Assembly: GCF_003568845.1 (NCBI RefSeq)
Contig: NZ_CP030126.1
Span: forward strand, 596,501 to 660,500
From: Indioceanicola profundi
Lineage (GTDB): Bacteria; Pseudomonadota; Alphaproteobacteria; Azospirillales; Azospirillaceae
Length of the DNA: 64,000 nucleotides
Direction of reading: 5' to 3'
This document shows, piece after piece, positions 12,779 to 18,842 of this stretch. The translations under genes were made by a program, and so were the position numbers. Position 1 is the first letter of the stretch; the number at the start of each line of letters is the position of its first letter. The notes under the pieces were generated by a model. That model made no database searches and was not told the origin of the DNA. It saw only the letters and a list, made by a program, of their open reading frames with translations.

Positions 12779-13552
12779 TCAGGTGCCGACAGCCGGTCTG
12801 ATCGTGTCGACGATGAGCGACAGTTCCCGCTCGTCCAAAGTGCCGACGACAACGAAGGTCTGACCACTCTCCACCCAGCTGGCCACGCTCAGCCCATGGT
12901 GGCTGTCGCTGATGGGGGGGCGATCCCCGTCCTCCGCCTTCGTGACGCAGACGGCAATGGGCAGCCGCCCTTCCGCCCGGTACATCAACTGGGCCACCGG
13001 CGCCGTGCCCAGCGTCATCAGCCGGGCTCCCGCAAAGCTGAAACCCGCATTCTCCAGGTCAGGCACCTGGAGCGGCCGTTCGAGGCGCCCGCCCAACCAG
13101 TGCTCGATATAGCCCTGCCGGCTGGCGGGCACCTCCACGAGATGCTCGGTCTCGGTCATGTAGACCGTGTGGTAGGCGGCGACCTCCTCATGCAGGTAGG
13201 CGATCTCGCTGCTGGGCGTGCCTGGAAGCGGCCCGGCCCGTACGGACAGGATCAGCACGATGGCCGCCGCGACGGCCAGACCCGCCACGACCGACCGCCG
13301 CCGCGTGGAGACCGACCGGCGCCGTGCCGGGGCCGCGGTATCGGCAACCCGCGTCTGACTGTCAGCGAAAGCCGCCCGCAGCAACACCCGCGACCGCCTC
13401 AGATCCTCCACCATGGCCTGGACCCGCGGGTCGGCAGCGATGCTGGCTTCGACCTCTGCCACCAGTTCGGGCGGTAATTCTCCGTCCACATAAGCGACGA
13501 GACGCTCCGGCCACACGACAACGGACGCTGGCCTGCCCTGTTGCTTGTTCAT
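12779..13552 (-). CDS. Anti-sigma factor-like membrane protein, second paralogue
   Basis: This 257-aa protein has a short N-terminal anti-sigma-type domain (residues about 14-60, AYVDGELPPELVAEVEAS), one membrane helix (about 86-106) and a periplasmic domain of about 145 residues. The domain shows no HxxxCxxC zinc motif. The periplasmic part (WLGGRLERPLQVPDL, GLSVASWVESGQTFVVVGTLD) is clearly related to the protein encoded upstream of the sigma gene. The ATG overlaps the sigma stop by four bases (ATGA), which is classic sigma/anti-sigma coupling. It should hold the ECF sigma factor at the membrane until a periplasmic signal arrives; the signal is unknown. Confidence 0.78.
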   Translation of the reverse strand: MNKQQGRPASVVVWPERLVAYVDGELPPELVAEVEASIAADPRVQAMVEDLRRSRVLLRAAFADSQTRVADTAAPARRRSVSTRRRSVVAGLAVAAAIVLILSVRAGPLPGTPSSEIAYLHEEVAAYHTVYMTETEHLVEVPASRQGYIEHWLGGRLERPLQVPDLENAGFSFAGARLMTLGTAPVAQLMYRAEGRLPIAVCVTKAEDGDRPPISDSHHGLSVASWVESGQTFVVVGTLDERELSLIVDTIRPAVGT

Positions 13553-14052
13553 TCCGCGGCCCTCCAGTGAGACGGCTTGGACCGGCTGCGCAGGTTCCTC
13601 ATCAGGGCCAGACGCCCCCTGGCCAGCCTGCTCATCACCGTGCCGACCGGGATGCCGAGCTGGTCGGCCGCTTCCTGGTAGGAGAGGCCATCCACGCAGA
13701 CCAGGATCATTACCGTCCGCTGTTCCGCTGGAAGCGTGCCGAGCACCTTGCGCACCGCCCCCAGGGTAATATGTGACTCGAGGTTCTGCCACCCGTCGCT
13801 GCTGGTCGCCTCACACGCTGCGTCCAACTGCTCGGCTGAAACCTGTTGTCGCATTTCCCGCTCCCTGTCGCTCCAGAGATTGAGGATTATGCGTCTCATC
13901 CATTGGTCGAATCCCTGGGGCTCCGGCGGATTCCCCTGGGACAGCGCGCGCTCGCAGGCTTCCTGGACCAGATCGTCGGCCGTGTCCTGCGATGGCGTCA
14001 GGCTGCGGGCGATGCGGCGGAGCATGGGAAGGGATCGGATGAGATCTCTCAT
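13549..14052 (-). CDS. ECF-type RNA polymerase sigma factor
   Basis: This 167-aa protein has the two-domain ECF layout. Region 2 (about 20-85) includes DTADDLVQEACERAL and FDQWMRRIILNLWSDRER. Region 4 (about 105-160) has a helix-turn-helix (LSYQEAADQLGIPVGTVMSRLARGR). It redirects RNA polymerase to an extracytoplasmic stress or envelope regulon. The frame extends 26 codons further upstream, but AAGGTG six bases before the ATG at 14052 and normal ECF length support this start. Anti-sigma-like genes lie on both sides in the same orientation, nine bases upstream and overlapping downstream. Confidence 0.9.
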   Translation of the reverse strand: MRDLIRSLPMLRRIARSLTPSQDTADDLVQEACERALSQGNPPEPQGFDQWMRRIILNLWSDREREMRQQVSAEQLDAACEATSSDGWQNLESHITLGAVRKVLGTLPAEQRTVMILVCVDGLSYQEAADQLGIPVGTVMSRLARGRLALMRNLRSRSKPSHWRAAE

Positions 14053-14060
14053 GACGCACC

Positions 14061-14981
14061 TTAAACGGCTCTGGGCATCGTTCCAGCGGTCGCGCCGCCA
14101 TGCGGATGGATCGTCCGGATGGTTGCCCAAGCCGGGCGGTGAGTGCGGATCGCATCGTCGACGATGACATCCGCGCTCGATCCAAGGTTCGCGCTGCCGG
14201 TCCCTCGGCGGCCAGCCTGCGTTCCGAGGACGGCCCCGATCCGTCGCGCATGACGGATGGCCAGGTCCTTCTGGACATGGCTGGACAACTGGTCCAGCTC
14301 CTCGCCGCTCAACTGGCCAAGCAGGGCCAGGAAATGTCCGTCTTGATCCCAGGCGGCGACGCGCAGGCCGTGGATGATGGTTGCGGTCGGGGGATGATCG
14401 GCCCGCTCCGAACGGGTGATGCAGATGGCGATCGGCTGTCGGCCCGGCGCCGAATAAACCAGCTCGACCAGGGGTGGCGGGCCGTACTTCAGAATTTGTC
14501 CGCTGGTGAATGTCCAGCCCGGCAGAAGCGGGACATCCACGGTCCTGCCGAGTTGCCGGCTCAACCAGCCGCTGGCCGACTCAAGGGACGCCGATTGCAC
14601 GGCCATGCGGGGCAGGGAACTGCTCCCCTCTCTGGTGAACTGCTCCACCACCTCGTGAAGCAGACGTCGGCGGGACAGGTCGACCTCCCGGTCCAGCATA
14701 CCGCTTCCGGCCCAGAGCAGGCCGGCCACACAGGCGGAAGCCAGTCCTGTCCTGGCAAACCGCCATCGCTGGTCCCGACGGGCCGTTCCCTGTACCCCGC
14801 CGGGGCGGCGCGCCTGGGCTGCGCCGGATGTCTGAAGCAATACGGAGAGCTGCCGGAACGCCTGCAACCTCGCGCGCGCCTCACTGTCCCTGGCCAGCGC
14901 CTCATCAACGGACGCAACTTCCTGAGCGTTCAGCTCTCCATCCAGATAGGCAGCCAGAAGCTCGTCGGTCAGTTTTATCAT
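14061..14981 (-). CDS. Anti-sigma factor-like membrane protein, first paralogue
   Basis: This 306-aa protein is the first gene of the three-gene sigma operon. Its N-terminus (LTDELLAAYLDGELNAQEV) is an anti-sigma-type helical domain without the zinc motif. A membrane helix lies near 76-95. The periplasmic domain (SGWLSRQLGRTVDVPLLPGW, PIAICITRSE, GLRVAAWDQDGHFLALLGQLS) parallels the downstream anti-sigma protein almost motif by motif. About 60 extra C-terminal residues of low-complexity character run to within eight bases of the sigma start. Whether it binds sigma, binds the other anti-sigma, or senses the signal cannot be told from sequence. Confidence 0.75.
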   Translation of the reverse strand: MIKLTDELLAAYLDGELNAQEVASVDEALARDSEARARLQAFRQLSVLLQTSGAAQARRPGGVQGTARRDQRWRFARTGLASACVAGLLWAGSGMLDREVDLSRRRLLHEVVEQFTREGSSSLPRMAVQSASLESASGWLSRQLGRTVDVPLLPGWTFTSGQILKYGPPPLVELVYSAPGRQPIAICITRSERADHPPTATIIHGLRVAAWDQDGHFLALLGQLSGEELDQLSSHVQKDLAIRHARRIGAVLGTQAGRRGTGSANLGSSADVIVDDAIRTHRPAWATIRTIHPHGGATAGTMPRAV

Positions 14982-15449: not shown

Positions 15450-15980
15450 GTGGCCAGTTTGGGACTTCATCATCTGATCCAGGCGATCGCCAGTGCCGTG
15501 GCGGAAGCCCAGGACAAGATTCACCGGTTCCAGATCGCGACCGTGCGGGACTATTTCGACGAGAAGAATCGTCCGAAGTCAGTCGATGTCCGCATGCCGT
15601 CACTGGCTGCCGATGCCGAGCCCGGTGATGAGCAAATCGTGCGCGTGCCGCTCCTGGCGTTGGTCGGGCCGCAGCTTCTGTCGATCAAGGAGGCGGAAAT
15701 CTCGTTCGAGGTCGGCCTGACCGGGATCGATGACAGTCCTGCGGAAGCGCCCGCCAAGCCCAATCCCGGTGCGGTGGGAAAAGATGACTCTGCCAAGGAC
15801 CCGAATGCCGGAGGGCAGGGGTGGCGCGGAGTCGGTCTGGAACGTGTGCTCGGCGTCGATGTCGCCGGCGCGAAAGGTCGGGGGCCCGGGGCAGTCGCCA
15901 AGGTGACCCTGAAGGTCGAGAGCCAGCCACCGTCCGATGGGATGGCGCGGCTGATCCAGCACCTCGACAAGATGATCTGA
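15450..15980 (+). CDS. DUF2589 family protein (first)
   Basis: This 176-aa cytoplasmic protein has no signal peptide or membrane helix. It begins with a helix (LHHLIQAIASAVAEAQDKIH), then YFDEKNRPKSVDVRMPS and the family core VPLLALVGPQLLSIKEAEISFEVGL. A flexible glycine/alanine linker (about 100-135) separates this from a last strand and helix, VTLKVESQPPSDGMARLIQHLD. This is the DUF2589 pattern, a beta-rich family of unknown function. The GTG start at 15450 follows a GGGGG stretch. The same core recurs in the next gene and, weakly, in a third. Confidence 0.78.
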   Translation: MASLGLHHLIQAIASAVAEAQDKIHRFQIATVRDYFDEKNRPKSVDVRMPSLAADAEPGDEQIVRVPLLALVGPQLLSIKEAEISFEVGLTGIDDSPAEAPAKPNPGAVGKDDSAKDPNAGGQGWRGVGLERVLGVDVAGAKGRGPGAVAKVTLKVESQPPSDGMARLIQHLDKMI

Positions 15981-16007
15981 AACTAGCATTCGAGGGGAGA
16001 AAGACAT

Positions 16008-16637
16008 ATGGCAACGATCGCTGATCAGTTCCGCGGCCTTCCGATGGGCGACCTCATCGGCGGCCCGCTCATGGCCGCCTGTGATGCCCAGGTCAAGCTG
16101 GCAAACGCCACGGCCAATTTCATCCGCGTGGTCGGTTTCAATCCGCCGACGGCGATCGATCCGAACGACCCGAACAAGGTCGGCGACATTCGGATGGTCA
16201 GCTTCAAGTACAACCGCCCGGCGGAGGACCAGACGGGGGCGTCGAACGGCGTCACCAAGCAGGAGACTGTGGAACTGGAAGTTCCGCTGCTCGCCGTGGT
16301 GAAGGTGCCGGCGCTGGCCATCAACACCGTGGACATCACCTTCGACATGGAGGTGAAGAACAGTGAGTCCTCCACCGAGAAGCAGGATGCGCAGGCTTCG
16401 CTGGACGCCTCCATGAAGTTCGGCTGGGGCATGTTCTCCGGCACCGTCCGCATCCAGGGCTCCGTCTCCAGCTCCAAGGAGAACCAGCGCTCCAGCGACA
16501 GCTCGGCCAAGTACACGGTCAACGTGAAGGCCGAGGACAAGGGCATGCCCGAAGGTCTGGCCCGTGTGCTTGACATGATGAACCAGGCCGTCGCGCCGAA
16601 GGCCATCGCCGCCAGGCCTGCCGCTCAGGCGGCGTGA
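16008..16637 (+). CDS. DUF2589 family protein (second)
   Basis: This 209-aa protein starts FRGLPMGDLIGGPLMAACDAQVKLANATANFI, then has VGDIRMVSFKYNRP and the core VPLLAVVKVPALAINTVDITFDMEV. That core parallels the first DUF2589 protein closely. A serine/lysine-rich middle (SESSTEKQD to SSSKENQRSSDSSAKY) leads into YTVNVKAEDKGMPEGLARVLDMMNQAV. The alternating pattern suggests beta strands followed by a C-terminal helix. GGGGAGAAA precedes the ATG. It is 27 bases after the first DUF2589 gene and surely co-transcribed. Function unknown. Confidence 0.8.
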   Translation: MATIADQFRGLPMGDLIGGPLMAACDAQVKLANATANFIRVVGFNPPTAIDPNDPNKVGDIRMVSFKYNRPAEDQTGASNGVTKQETVELEVPLLAVVKVPALAINTVDITFDMEVKNSESSTEKQDAQASLDASMKFGWGMFSGTVRIQGSVSSSKENQRSSDSSAKYTVNVKAEDKGMPEGLARVLDMMNQAVAPKAIAARPAAQAA

Positions 16638-16677
16638 TCCTTGAGTCTGAACCGTCCTCTCCGGAAGGGCTGCTGCG

Positions 16678-16932
16678 ATGTTCGATTTGACGGATGTGGG
16701 ATTTGTCAAACGGATCACCTTGGGCAGTACCAATCCGGAGAGGATGGATACAGAGGAAGAAGTCCAGAAGGCAGCGGAACTATTGAACCGCTGCCTTTCG
16801 GATACGCCAAAGGGGCGGATCATCGGCGTCGAGAAAAATTTCTCGATTCTGAACATCGGCGAGCATCAAGTCGTCCTCCAATGCATTGTCTATCATGTGG
16901 GATTTCCGCGGAAGCCATACTGGCTCGAGTGA
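16678..16932 (+). CDS. 84-aa protein of unknown function in the DUF2589 cluster
   Basis: I do not recognise this protein. It has no signal peptide, membrane helix or cysteine pair. The N-terminal half is helical (TEEEVQKAAELLNRCLSD). The C-terminal half looks like beta strands (GRIIGVEKNFSILNI, then EHQVVLQCIVYHVGF) ending in PRKPYWLE. The ATG has GGAAGGG in front. It lies between DUF2589-type genes with gaps of 40 and 27 bases, so it probably works with them. Confidence 0.7.
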   Translation: MFDLTDVGFVKRITLGSTNPERMDTEEEVQKAAELLNRCLSDTPKGRIIGVEKNFSILNIGEHQVVLQCIVYHVGFPRKPYWLE

Positions 16933-16959
16933 ACCCTGGATGGGGAGCTCCGCATTCAC

Positions 16960-17478
16960 ATGTCGACGATCAGCCTCGACGACTTCGTCCTGCGGCTTCA
17001 GACGGCTGCCGGCCTCGCACAGGATGCCCTGGCGGCACGGGAACGCAGCCGCGTCGCCCGCGATCTGCTGCTCGACGGGCAGAGCAATGTCGAGGCCGAG
17101 ACATGGTGCCTGAAAGTCGACATGACCCCGCCCGGCGGCGGTGCGCCGCGGACCATTTCGATACCCTTCGCGACGCTCTACAATCTCGGCGAAACGAAGA
17201 TCACCCAGTTCCGGGTGGAGACCACGGCCACGGTGGAGGCGGTGCCTTCGCCTGTCGATCCCGCGCGGGAGGAGCTGCAACTGCGTATCGGCCCGCCGAA
17301 GTCACGGCGCGAGCGCCTGCACAATCTGGTGATCGACATCTTCGGCGTCCGCTTCGAGAAGGCGGAGGTGCGGATCAATGACCGCATTCTCCGCGTCTTC
17401 GGCTTCCGCCCGGGCGAGCGGGAGGGCAGGCCGCAGGACGGGCAGCCCGCTGCTGCGCCGCCTCGTTCCGAAACGTAG
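16960..17478 (+). CDS. DUF2589-like protein (third, divergent)
   Basis: This 172-aa protein starts with ISLDDFVLRLQTAAGLAQDALAARE, a helix like that of the first DUF2589 protein. SIPFATLYNLGETKITQFRVETT then sits where the others have VPLLA...I....F.V. The match is weak but in the same order and spacing, so I infer a diverged DUF2589 member. The C-terminal 25 residues are a polar tail. The last 101 bases overlap the next reading frame. No membrane or secretion signal is seen. Confidence 0.65.
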   Translation: MSTISLDDFVLRLQTAAGLAQDALAARERSRVARDLLLDGQSNVEAETWCLKVDMTPPGGGAPRTISIPFATLYNLGETKITQFRVETTATVEAVPSPVDPAREELQLRIGPPKSRRERLHNLVIDIFGVRFEKAEVRINDRILRVFGFRPGEREGRPQDGQPAAAPPRSET

Positions 17479-17719
17479 GTCCGACAACGGCATCACCCTG
17501 CGCCTGTCCCAGCAGGAGCAGGACGTGCTGCGCGCCATCCTTGCCGAAACGGAACCCTTGCCGGAGCCGCTGCCGGAACGCCGGACTGCGCCTGCCCTGA
17601 TCGCGGCGCTGCTGCTGCTTCTGGTCTGCGGGGCGGCCGGCTGGCTCGTCCTGAATCCCGGCGCCTTGGCCGCCATCCTGGCCTTTTTCAAACAACAACT
17701 CGGCACCATCGGCGGCTGA
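17378..17719 (+). CDS. Small single-pass membrane protein overlapping the third DUF2589-like gene
   Basis: This 113-aa frame has a basic, serine-rich N-terminus, a helix (LRLSQQEQDVLRAILAE), a Pro/Glu stretch and a strong membrane segment near 71-92 (APALIAALLLLLVCGAAGW), with a hydrophobic tail. The ATG at 17378 has GGAGG nine bases before it, which supports the 101-base overlap with the preceding gene. A shorter version from the GTG near 17526, which also has AGGAG upstream, is the alternative. It could anchor the cytoplasmic DUF2589 proteins to the membrane, but that is a guess from context. Confidence 0.55.
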   Translation: MTAFSASSASARASGRAGRRTGSPLLRRLVPKRRSDNGITLRLSQQEQDVLRAILAETEPLPEPLPERRTAPALIAALLLLLVCGAAGWLVLNPGALAAILAFFKQQLGTIGG

Positions 17720-17760
17720 TCGCTGGCGCGCGGCCGGATGTGGCACAAGGGAGATCATCC

Positions 17761-18519
17761 ATGACCGTCCAGAAGACCCGTTCCAGCCTCGCCGCGCTGA
17801 TGCTGGCGCTTGTCTTGGCGCCGACGGCGGCATCGGCTGCCGATCTGTCCGCGATCAAGGGGGAGTGGCTCGGCACTCTCGACCGCAGGGGACGGCCCGT
17901 CCCGGTCATGCTGAAGATCAATCCGGCGGCAGCCGGCGCGCCGGCGGGCGAACTCGAGTTCGGAGAGCCGGACGGGTGTCGGAACCCGATCACCTTCAAC
18001 GGCGGAACAGGCGACAATTTCACCTTCACGCTGGAGCCTTCCAACGGTGGTCGTTGCGAAGCCTATTCGCTTGGCCGGATGAGCCTCACCGTCATGGCGG
18101 ATGGCGATCTTTCCCTGGCCGTGACCCAGGCCGACCACAAGCCGGGTCCGGCGGCGACGCTCAGCCTCGCAACCAAGGCGCCGGTCTCGAAGGCCGTCAT
18201 CGGCAAGTGGTCGGGCAGCTACGTCGGTCGCGGCAGCGTTGTACCGCTGACGCTTGCCCTGAATTCGGTGAGGCCCGGGCAGCCGTCCGGCACGCTGATC
18301 TTCGCCGGCGACGACGACTGCTCCAACCCGCTGGAGTTCTCCGGCATGCTTGGCGACGGTTCCTACGTCTTCACGCCGTTCGCCTCGGACGGTGGGCGTT
18401 GCGAGCTTGACGTCTTCGGCACGCTGACAGTTCGGCCGGGCGCGGACGGGGTTACTGCCACCCTGGTCCAGCGGAACGGGGTGAAGCGCTTCGACGCGGT
18501 GCTCTCTGGCGCGAAATGA
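17761..18519 (+). CDS. Secreted protein with two copies of one cysteine-containing domain
   Basis: This 252-aa protein has a signal peptide (cleavage near ASA, about residue 27) and two tandem domains of roughly 110 residues. Each reads G.W.G, then V.L.L.....G.P.G.L.F, then C.NP..F.G..GD...F, then GGRC, then a repeat of short strands, so each has two matching cysteines that may form a disulfide. No family is recognised; the look is of a small beta-barrel or lipocalin-like fold. AAGGGAG precedes the ATG at 17761. It lies 41 bases after the membrane protein gene and closes the DUF2589 cluster, suggesting an envelope role. Confidence 0.72.
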   Translation: MTVQKTRSSLAALMLALVLAPTAASAADLSAIKGEWLGTLDRRGRPVPVMLKINPAAAGAPAGELEFGEPDGCRNPITFNGGTGDNFTFTLEPSNGGRCEAYSLGRMSLTVMADGDLSLAVTQADHKPGPAATLSLATKAPVSKAVIGKWSGSYVGRGSVVPLTLALNSVRPGQPSGTLIFAGDDDCSNPLEFSGMLGDGSYVFTPFASDGGRCELDVFGTLTVRPGADGVTATLVQRNGVKRFDAVLSGAK

Positions 18520-18576: not shown

Positions 18577-18732
18577 TCAATGCGCAAGCGCCGGGCTCGG
18601 CGTAGGCGCGGCAATCATGGACTGCAGGACCTGCAGAACGCCGCAGCAGATGGCGAGGAAGCCGACGCCCATCACCGCGGCGACGCCGGTGAGCAGGATG
18701 CCGAAAAGCGTGAACAGGATGATGGTGGCCAT
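18577..18732 (-). CDS. 51-aa membrane mini-protein
   Basis: The peptide MATIILFTLFGILLTGVAAV continues hydrophobic to about residue 38, with a Cys-Cys pair (AICCGVL), and ends in a proline/alanine tail. It should be one or two membrane helices. The frame extends 11 codons further, but GGGAGAG six bases before the ATG at 18732 fixes this start. No function is recognised. It stands alone between the DUF2589 cluster (convergent) and the yaiI-type gene. Confidence 0.6.
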   Translation of the reverse strand: MATIILFTLFGILLTGVAAVMGVGFLAICCGVLQVLQSMIAAPTPSPALAH

Positions 18733-18842
18733 GATCGCTCTCCCGTGACTGGATGAGCTCAGCATGGTCTCCTTTGCGGCCGTTGTGATTGAGCTGCCTC
18801 AATCAGGATGCGATTTCACAGGCGGGGCGGAATAAGCGTCGG

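What the first reader, a model, noticed from the sequence alone, without database searches (positions are those of the whole stretch)
15450..18519. DUF2589 gene cluster: candidate undescribed envelope-linked system
Six consecutive plus-strand genes combine two clear DUF2589 proteins, a third diverged one with the same core order (helix, then VPLLA..I....F.V), an 84-aa orphan, a single-pass membrane protein and a secreted two-domain protein. Gaps are 27-41 bases or overlaps, so they form one operon. Three paralogues of a soluble beta-rich family plus a membrane and a periplasmic partner suggest a multi-subunit assembly crossing the envelope. I know of no assigned function for DUF2589. The adjacent divergent ECF sigma operon strengthens the case for a regulated system.
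Basis: partly seen in the sequence, partly recalled or inferred. Interest (0 to 1): 0.75.

Follow-up and report, generated by a model that had tools for sequence, protein, structure and literature searches.

The report
DUF2589 pore-and-cell-wall-lysis gene module
A widely scattered but undescribed set of bacterial genes (DUF2589) keeps recruiting unrelated cell-wall-cutting enzymes and has one protein whose sequence looks like a pore-forming hairpin, so it may be a new kind of self-lysis or protein-export cassette; the copy in this window has kept the conserved core but has no wall-cutting enzyme beside it.

Summary
The six genes are real. A and B are DUF2589 (Pfam 3e-19, 8e-44); D is a diverged relative (hhalign 96%, E 3e-9); C (84 aa) has no family; E has one membrane helix; F has a signal-peptide-like N-terminus. 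The cluster is a conserved module, A-B-C, found in Pseudomonas, Azospirillum, Sphingomonas, Collimonas, Vibrio, Succinivibrionaceae and Bacteroidetes. In 399 Pseudomonadota genomes C occurs in 5, all 5 of which have the DUF2589 pair. D-E-F occur in one subtype only. New here: in 21 of 29 A-B-C loci (23 counting two anchored MltF-like proteins) a peptidoglycan hydrolase sits in the cassette. The leaderless ones come from five unrelated families (GH19, GH24, N-acetylmuramidase, Amidase_3, an endolysin-like protein). Hydrolase family changes at least 7 times on the B tree. B has a conserved amphipathic beta-hairpin in a 75-residue Ser/Thr-rich stretch, close to the published aerolysin-family signature. 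Best guess: B, aided by A and C, makes an inner-membrane pore that lets a partner hydrolase reach the wall, for lysis or export. The focal copy and its sister lack any adjacent hydrolase. The pore function is inferred. The ECF sigma link is not conserved. No published function for DUF2589 was found.

The parts
15450..15980 (+). A: DUF2589 paralogue without the hairpin; N-terminal helix, VPLLALVGPQLL strand core
   Evidence: PF11655 3.4e-19; dN/dS 0.18 vs L053
16008..16637 (+). B: DUF2589 paralogue with conserved amphipathic beta-hairpin; proposed pore-forming subunit
   Evidence: PF11655 8.1e-44; AF2 H13-43, E63-71, E85-93, E103-116, E165-177, H182-194, pLDDT 65.9
16371..16538 (+). B residues about 122-177: polar Ser-rich flanks and the hairpin (129-140 / 143-154)
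   Evidence: hydrophobic/polar alternation 1.00 and 0.92, permutation p 0.002 and 0.004; segment 103-177 Ser+Thr 24% vs 10% elsewhere
16678..16932 (+). C: 84-aa core protein, beta-alpha-beta-beta, no known family
   Evidence: AF2 pLDDT 91.5; found only with A+B, 5 of 5 genomes in 399; dN/dS 0.05
16960..17478 (+). D: third, diverged DUF2589-like protein; shortened in Pseudomonas
   Evidence: hhalign to A profile 96.1%, E 3e-9
17378..17719 (+). E: single membrane helix then short amphipathic C-terminal segment (start uncertain)
   Evidence: KD19 2.70 at residues 74-92; similar layout in homologues
17761..18519 (+). F: protein with signal-peptide-like N-terminus; two tandem copies of a domain that is single in Azospirillum and Pseudomonas
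   Evidence: alignment A4; N-terminal hydrophobicity of homologues

Best explanation
A-B-C is a host-encoded cassette that lets a peptidoglycan hydrolase made in the cytoplasm reach the cell wall. B is a soluble protein that, with A and C, oligomerises and pushes its amphipathic hairpin into the inner membrane as a beta-barrel-like pore, doing the job that holins do in phages. The linked leaderless hydrolase then passes through and opens the wall, causing regulated lysis or release of co-produced cargo (in Pseudomonas, an EndoU-family RNase). E (membrane helix plus amphipathic segment) and F (periplasmic) would tune or complete this in the Azospirillum/Pseudomonas subtype. The focal locus is a hydrolase-less derivative: it must use a hydrolase encoded elsewhere, or serve as a pore or regulator alone. 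Shown: conserved module, hydrolase association, absence of leader on those hydrolases, hairpin pattern, absence of such a hydrolase in the focal window. Inferred: oligomerisation, membrane insertion, direction of action, lysis versus export, roles of A, C, D, E, F.
For: Linkage: 21 of 29 A-B-C loci carry a leaderless hydrolase in the cassette, same strand (GH19, GH24, PF11860, Amidase_3, or a PHROG endolysin-like protein), and two Vibrio loci an MltF-like SLT protein. Loci without C (L036 B-A-GH24, L061 B-A-GH19) show the same. Of 26 such hits in all loci read, 25 are in the cassette. Within two genes 11/112 vs 0/87 five to six genes away, p 0.003. Hydrolase family changes at least 7 times on the B tree, so this is recurrent recruitment. 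No leader: all have low N-terminal hydrophobicity, unlike EndoU and F controls. Pore: B residues 129-140 and 143-154 alternate between hydrophobic and polar in opposite phase, as in a hairpin with turn 141-142 and aromatic tip; AF2 leaves 118-164 unplaced. Segment 103-177, bounded by AF2 strands, is 74.7 +/- 2.1 residues with Ser+Thr 24%; PMC4823867 gives 75 +/- 8 and 23-44% for aerolysin-family insertion regions. C co-occurs 5/5.
Against: The focal locus, its sister L053, L056 and L018 have no adjacent peptidoglycan hydrolase, and the own genome has no GH19 match, though that control search rang nowhere. Amphipathic alternation is typical of any beta-sheet, including other strands of B. No solved fold resembles B; model confidence is modest. 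B lacks the aerolysin-family domain layout. Bacteroidales-type DUF2589 loci have neither C nor hydrolase. Sphingomonas loci carry a weakly astacin-like metallopeptidase instead.
Confidence: 0.4

Rival explanations
1. Effector operon: the hydrolases, EndoU and metallopeptidases are antibacterial effectors delivered into neighbours, and A-B-C are chaperones, adaptors or carriers for a contractile or type VI system.
For: The enzyme types (GH19, lysozymes, amidases, EndoU) are common effector domains (general knowledge); cargo is variable while A-B-C is conserved; a small 86-97 aa gene follows EndoU like an immunity gene.
Against: Nine of 16 module-bearing genomes, the focal one included, lack VipB, and the focal, sister and three others lack both VipB and contractile sheath matches. 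EndoU and F have signal-peptide-like N-termini, so they do not need injection to leave the cytoplasm.
Confidence: 0.2
2. Released particle: A-B-C(-D) self-assemble into a cytoplasmic particle or toxin complex, and the hydrolase is a lysis enzyme that frees it, as with tailocins or Tc toxins in the type 10 system.
For: Two or three paralogous subunits plus a small conserved subunit; endolysin-type partners without leaders; T10SS precedent PMC10847048.
Against: No separate holin is apparent in the compact cassettes (L025, L036, L061), so A/B/C would still have to breach the membrane; no similarity to capsid, tail or toxin families.
Confidence: 0.2
3. Envelope-stress or cell-wall homeostasis module: DUF2589 proteins bind and regulate or inhibit murein hydrolases and respond to an ECF or LytTR signal.
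For: Regulators such as ECF sigma, AraC and LytTR sit beside the loci; two Vibrio loci have an anchored MltF-like protein; focal copy lacks a hydrolase.
Against: Partner enzymes are phage-type and unrelated to each other, which does not fit one binding inhibitor; regulators are not conserved.
Confidence: 0.15
4. Degraded or domesticated remnant: the focal cassette lost its hydrolase and is decaying.
For: No hydrolase nearby; F is weakly conserved, dN/dS 0.69.
Against: All six frames open; C dN/dS 0.05 and A 0.18 against L053, which shares the same hydrolase-less layout.
Confidence: 0.05

Closest known systems
PF11655 (DUF2589), protein family of unknown function
   Same: A and B are clear members, D a distant relative
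   Different: Pfam gives no function; here a pair rule, partner C, hydrolase linkage and a hairpin are described
Type 10 secretion / host holin-endolysin cassettes (Serratia chitinase, Yersinia entomophaga YenLC)
   Same: Leaderless peptidoglycan hydrolase encoded with proteins that must let it cross the inner membrane; sometimes with a secreted cargo (PMC10847048, PMC9527704)
   Different: No alpha-helical holin or spanin family is found; the core proteins are soluble beta-rich DUF2589 proteins
Aerolysin-family beta pore-forming proteins
   Same: Amphipathic alternating loop between two strands, about 75 residues, Ser/Thr rich (PMC4823867)
   Different: No sequence or fold match; no signal peptide; different domain layout
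TpeE-type small holins (one membrane helix plus amphipathic helix)
   Same: E has one membrane helix then a short amphipathic segment (PMC9527704)
   Different: No sequence link tested; E is absent from most other hydrolase cassettes

Membership tests
DUF2589 (PF11655) | Match above the curated cut-off of 23 bits | tested here: met
   A 70.1 bits, B 150.1 bits; D and C not matched by Pfam; D by profile-profile only
Holin-endolysin / type 10 secretion cassette | Leaderless peptidoglycan hydrolase in the operon | tested here: not met
   Met in 21 of 29 related A-B-C loci but not in the focal locus
Holin-endolysin / type 10 secretion cassette | Holin with transmembrane helices | tested here: inconclusive
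   E is a single-helix protein in the focal subtype, but other hydrolase-bearing cassettes have no E; A, B, C show no strongly hydrophobic N-terminus
Holin-endolysin / type 10 secretion cassette | Spanin or outer-membrane disruption protein | not tested
   F has a signal-peptide-like start but no family match
Aerolysin-family beta pore-forming proteins | Amphipathic insertion loop in a Ser/Thr-rich stretch of about 75 residues | tested here: met
   Mean 74.7 residues, Ser+Thr 24% (range 17-35), alternation p 0.002 and 0.004
Aerolysin-family beta pore-forming proteins | Homologous pore-forming module fold | tested here: not met
   No PDB match by profile or fold at any useful score
Type VI / contractile injection effector operon | Injection apparatus in the genome | tested here: not met
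   No VipB and no sheath match in the focal genome
Phage defence systems (PADLOC) | Match to a defence protein model | tested here: not met
   No significant match for A-F

The most novel reading that the evidence does not exclude
DUF2589 proteins are a new class of bacterial intracellular beta-hairpin pore formers, which have repeatedly and independently paired with unrelated peptidoglycan hydrolases to make host-owned lysis or export cassettes without any classical holin.
Probability: 0.3. Interest if true: 0.85.

Novelty: new variant of a known kind. Interest (0 to 1): 0.62.

Why it matters
DUF2589 has had no assigned function; the only paper in the library searched mentions it once, in an archaeal transcriptome. 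If the reading is right, it gives this family a testable job, adds a beta-type route by which cytoplasmic enzymes cross the inner membrane, and points to a scattered lysis or release system in many bacteria. The recurrence of five unrelated leaderless hydrolase families beside the same core is the kind of pattern that makes function directly testable.

Tried and rejected
Phage origin: B and C gave no PHROG match and no viral-contig relatives; one unverified phage scaffold holds two DUF2589 genes and a muramidase. Structure route: B fold searches gave nothing in PDB; in the viral library the one strong hit, A0A516MP19 (36% identity, unnamed), looks like a DUF2589 protein itself; C gave only weak Alba-like matches. 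Profile searches of PDB for A, B, C, F found nothing. T6SS or sheath dependence rejected as general. Early clustering that joined Azospirillum downstream genes to EndoU was caused by shadow ORFs and was dropped; those loci carry GH19 instead. My first Fisher test used a near set to which I had added known hydrolases beyond two genes; the strict count is.

Full report
WHAT IS THERE. The six ORFs are present as described. A and B match DUF2589 (PF11655) with E 3e-19 and 8e-44; C, D, E and F match nothing in Pfam or NCBIfam. D is nevertheless a distant DUF2589 relative: its profile aligns to the A profile with 96.1% probability, E 3e-9, over 143 columns, while B against A gives 98.2% and C against A nothing. 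C is a confident small beta-alpha-beta-beta fold (pLDDT 91.5). E has one membrane helix followed by a short amphipathic segment. F has a signal-peptide-like start and two copies of a domain that is single elsewhere.

IT IS A CONSERVED MODULE. DUF2589 is rare and patchy: 6 of 82 genomes in the family, 9 of 399 in the phylum, 3 of 349 in one betaproteobacterial order, 19 of 297 in the phylum of the Fulvivirga locus. Among relatives close to B it comes as a pair of unlike paralogues, A and B, nearly always adjacent. C is tied to the pair: in a sample of 399 genomes C occurs in five, and all five have DUF2589 beside it (chance about 1e-9, or 7e-8 without the own genome). On plasmids C occurs in exactly the three records that carry the close A-B pair. 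Gene order varies: A-B-C in most Proteobacteria, A-C-x-B in Collimonas, B-C-A in Bacteroidetes. D-E-F follow A-B-C only in the Azospirillum/Pseudomonas subtype. The flanks of the focal locus and of its sister L053 differ, so the operon moves between sites.

RECURRENT PEPTIDOGLYCAN HYDROLASES. Of 29 loci with A, B and C, 21 contain, on the same strand and in the cassette, a hydrolase without a signal peptide: GH19 (Pseudomonas, Azospirillum, Collimonas, L012), GH24 phage-type lysozyme (L025, L028, L058), PF11860 N-acetylmuramidase (L033), Amidase_3 (L059), or a protein matching a PHROG endolysin family at 3e-14 (Bacteroidetes L026, L027, L031). Two Vibrio loci have instead a membrane-anchored SBP_bac_3+SLT protein like MltF, divergent in one of them. 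Loci without C repeat the pattern: B-A-GH24 on a Burkholderia megaplasmid, B-A-GH19 in L061, DUF2589-muramidase in L037. Of 26 hits to these hydrolase models in all loci read, 25 lie in the cassette. Because the models were seeded from neighbours, an independent check was made with Pfam: within two genes 11 of 112 against 0 of 87 at five to six genes, p 0.003. The hydrolase family changes at least seven times on the B tree (several forks are weak), so the association has arisen repeatedly. N-terminal hydrophobicity of these enzymes is low, while EndoU and F score like exported proteins. Sphingomonas loci carry a weakly astacin-like leaderless metallopeptidase; six Pseudomonas loci and L018 also carry an EndoU-family RNase.

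B LOOKS LIKE A HAIRPIN PORE FORMER. The AF2 model of B (pLDDT 65.9) has a long helix (13-43), strands up to 103-116 and 165-177, and leaves 118-164 unplaced. In that gap, averaged over 23 homologues, residues 129-140 and 143-154 alternate between hydrophobic and polar, in opposite phase, so that 140/143, 138/145, 136/147, 134/149, 132/151 and 130/153 face one side of a hairpin with a two-residue turn and aromatic tip. The stretch 103-177, bounded by the AF2 strands before the comparison was made, is 74.7 +/- 2.1 residues with 24% Ser+Thr against 10% in the rest. The lysenin paper reports for aerolysin-family pre-insertion strands plus loops 75 +/- 8 residues, 23-44% Ser+Thr and alternating character (PMC4823867). 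A lacks this hairpin. This is resemblance, not homology: no fold or sequence match was found.

HOW IT MAY WORK. A soluble pore former that delivers a leaderless hydrolase to the wall would explain why unrelated hydrolases keep being recruited. It works like a holin-endolysin or type 10 cassette (PMC10847048, PMC9527704) but is not a member: no holin or spanin family is present. Type VI delivery is not general, since 9 of 16 module-bearing genomes lack VipB and the focal genome lacks sheath genes too.

THE FOCAL COPY. Neither the 64 kb window nor the sister locus holds a hydrolase of these kinds near the cassette, although the closest subtype in Azospirillum has GH19 directly after F. C and A are under strong purifying selection, so the cassette is probably functional with a partner elsewhere or in a different role. 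This is the weakest point of the explanation for this locus. The divergent ECF sigma operon is not conserved with the module.

Noticed in passing
L116, L118-L124, L128, L129; also L060, L063, L067: A second DUF2589 subtype, mostly in the Bacteroidetes draw: B followed by a ~230-aa A-like protein with a long insertion and a ~190-aa helical protein, with no C and no hydrolase.
   Followed up: partly
L013, L014, L015, L020-L022, L018 downstream of F: Signal-peptide EndoU-family RNase followed by an 86-97 aa protein that may be its immunity protein.
   Followed up: partly
window 12779-14981, minus strand: ECF sigma gene flanked on both sides by anti-sigma-like genes with zinc-finger-type N-termini; two anti-sigma candidates for one sigma factor is unusual.
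   Followed up: no
L137 413-1324: Leaderless 303-aa protein beside a DUF2589 pair that by eye resembles a peptidoglycan-binding plus NlpC/P60-like enzyme, but no Pfam match.
   Followed up: no
L037 (MT839761.1): Unverified phage scaffold from human faeces with two DUF2589 genes, a weakly fimbrillin-like gene and a muramidase; probably bacterial DNA.
   Followed up: partly
L034 9425-9844, L035 11667-12083, L061 5656-6123: A Mor-like HTH regulator family recurs beside DUF2589 loci in Vibrio and an alphaproteobacterium.
   Followed up: no
window 18577-18765, minus strand: Small convergent, apparently membrane-spanning protein of about 60 aa directly after F, no family.
   Followed up: no
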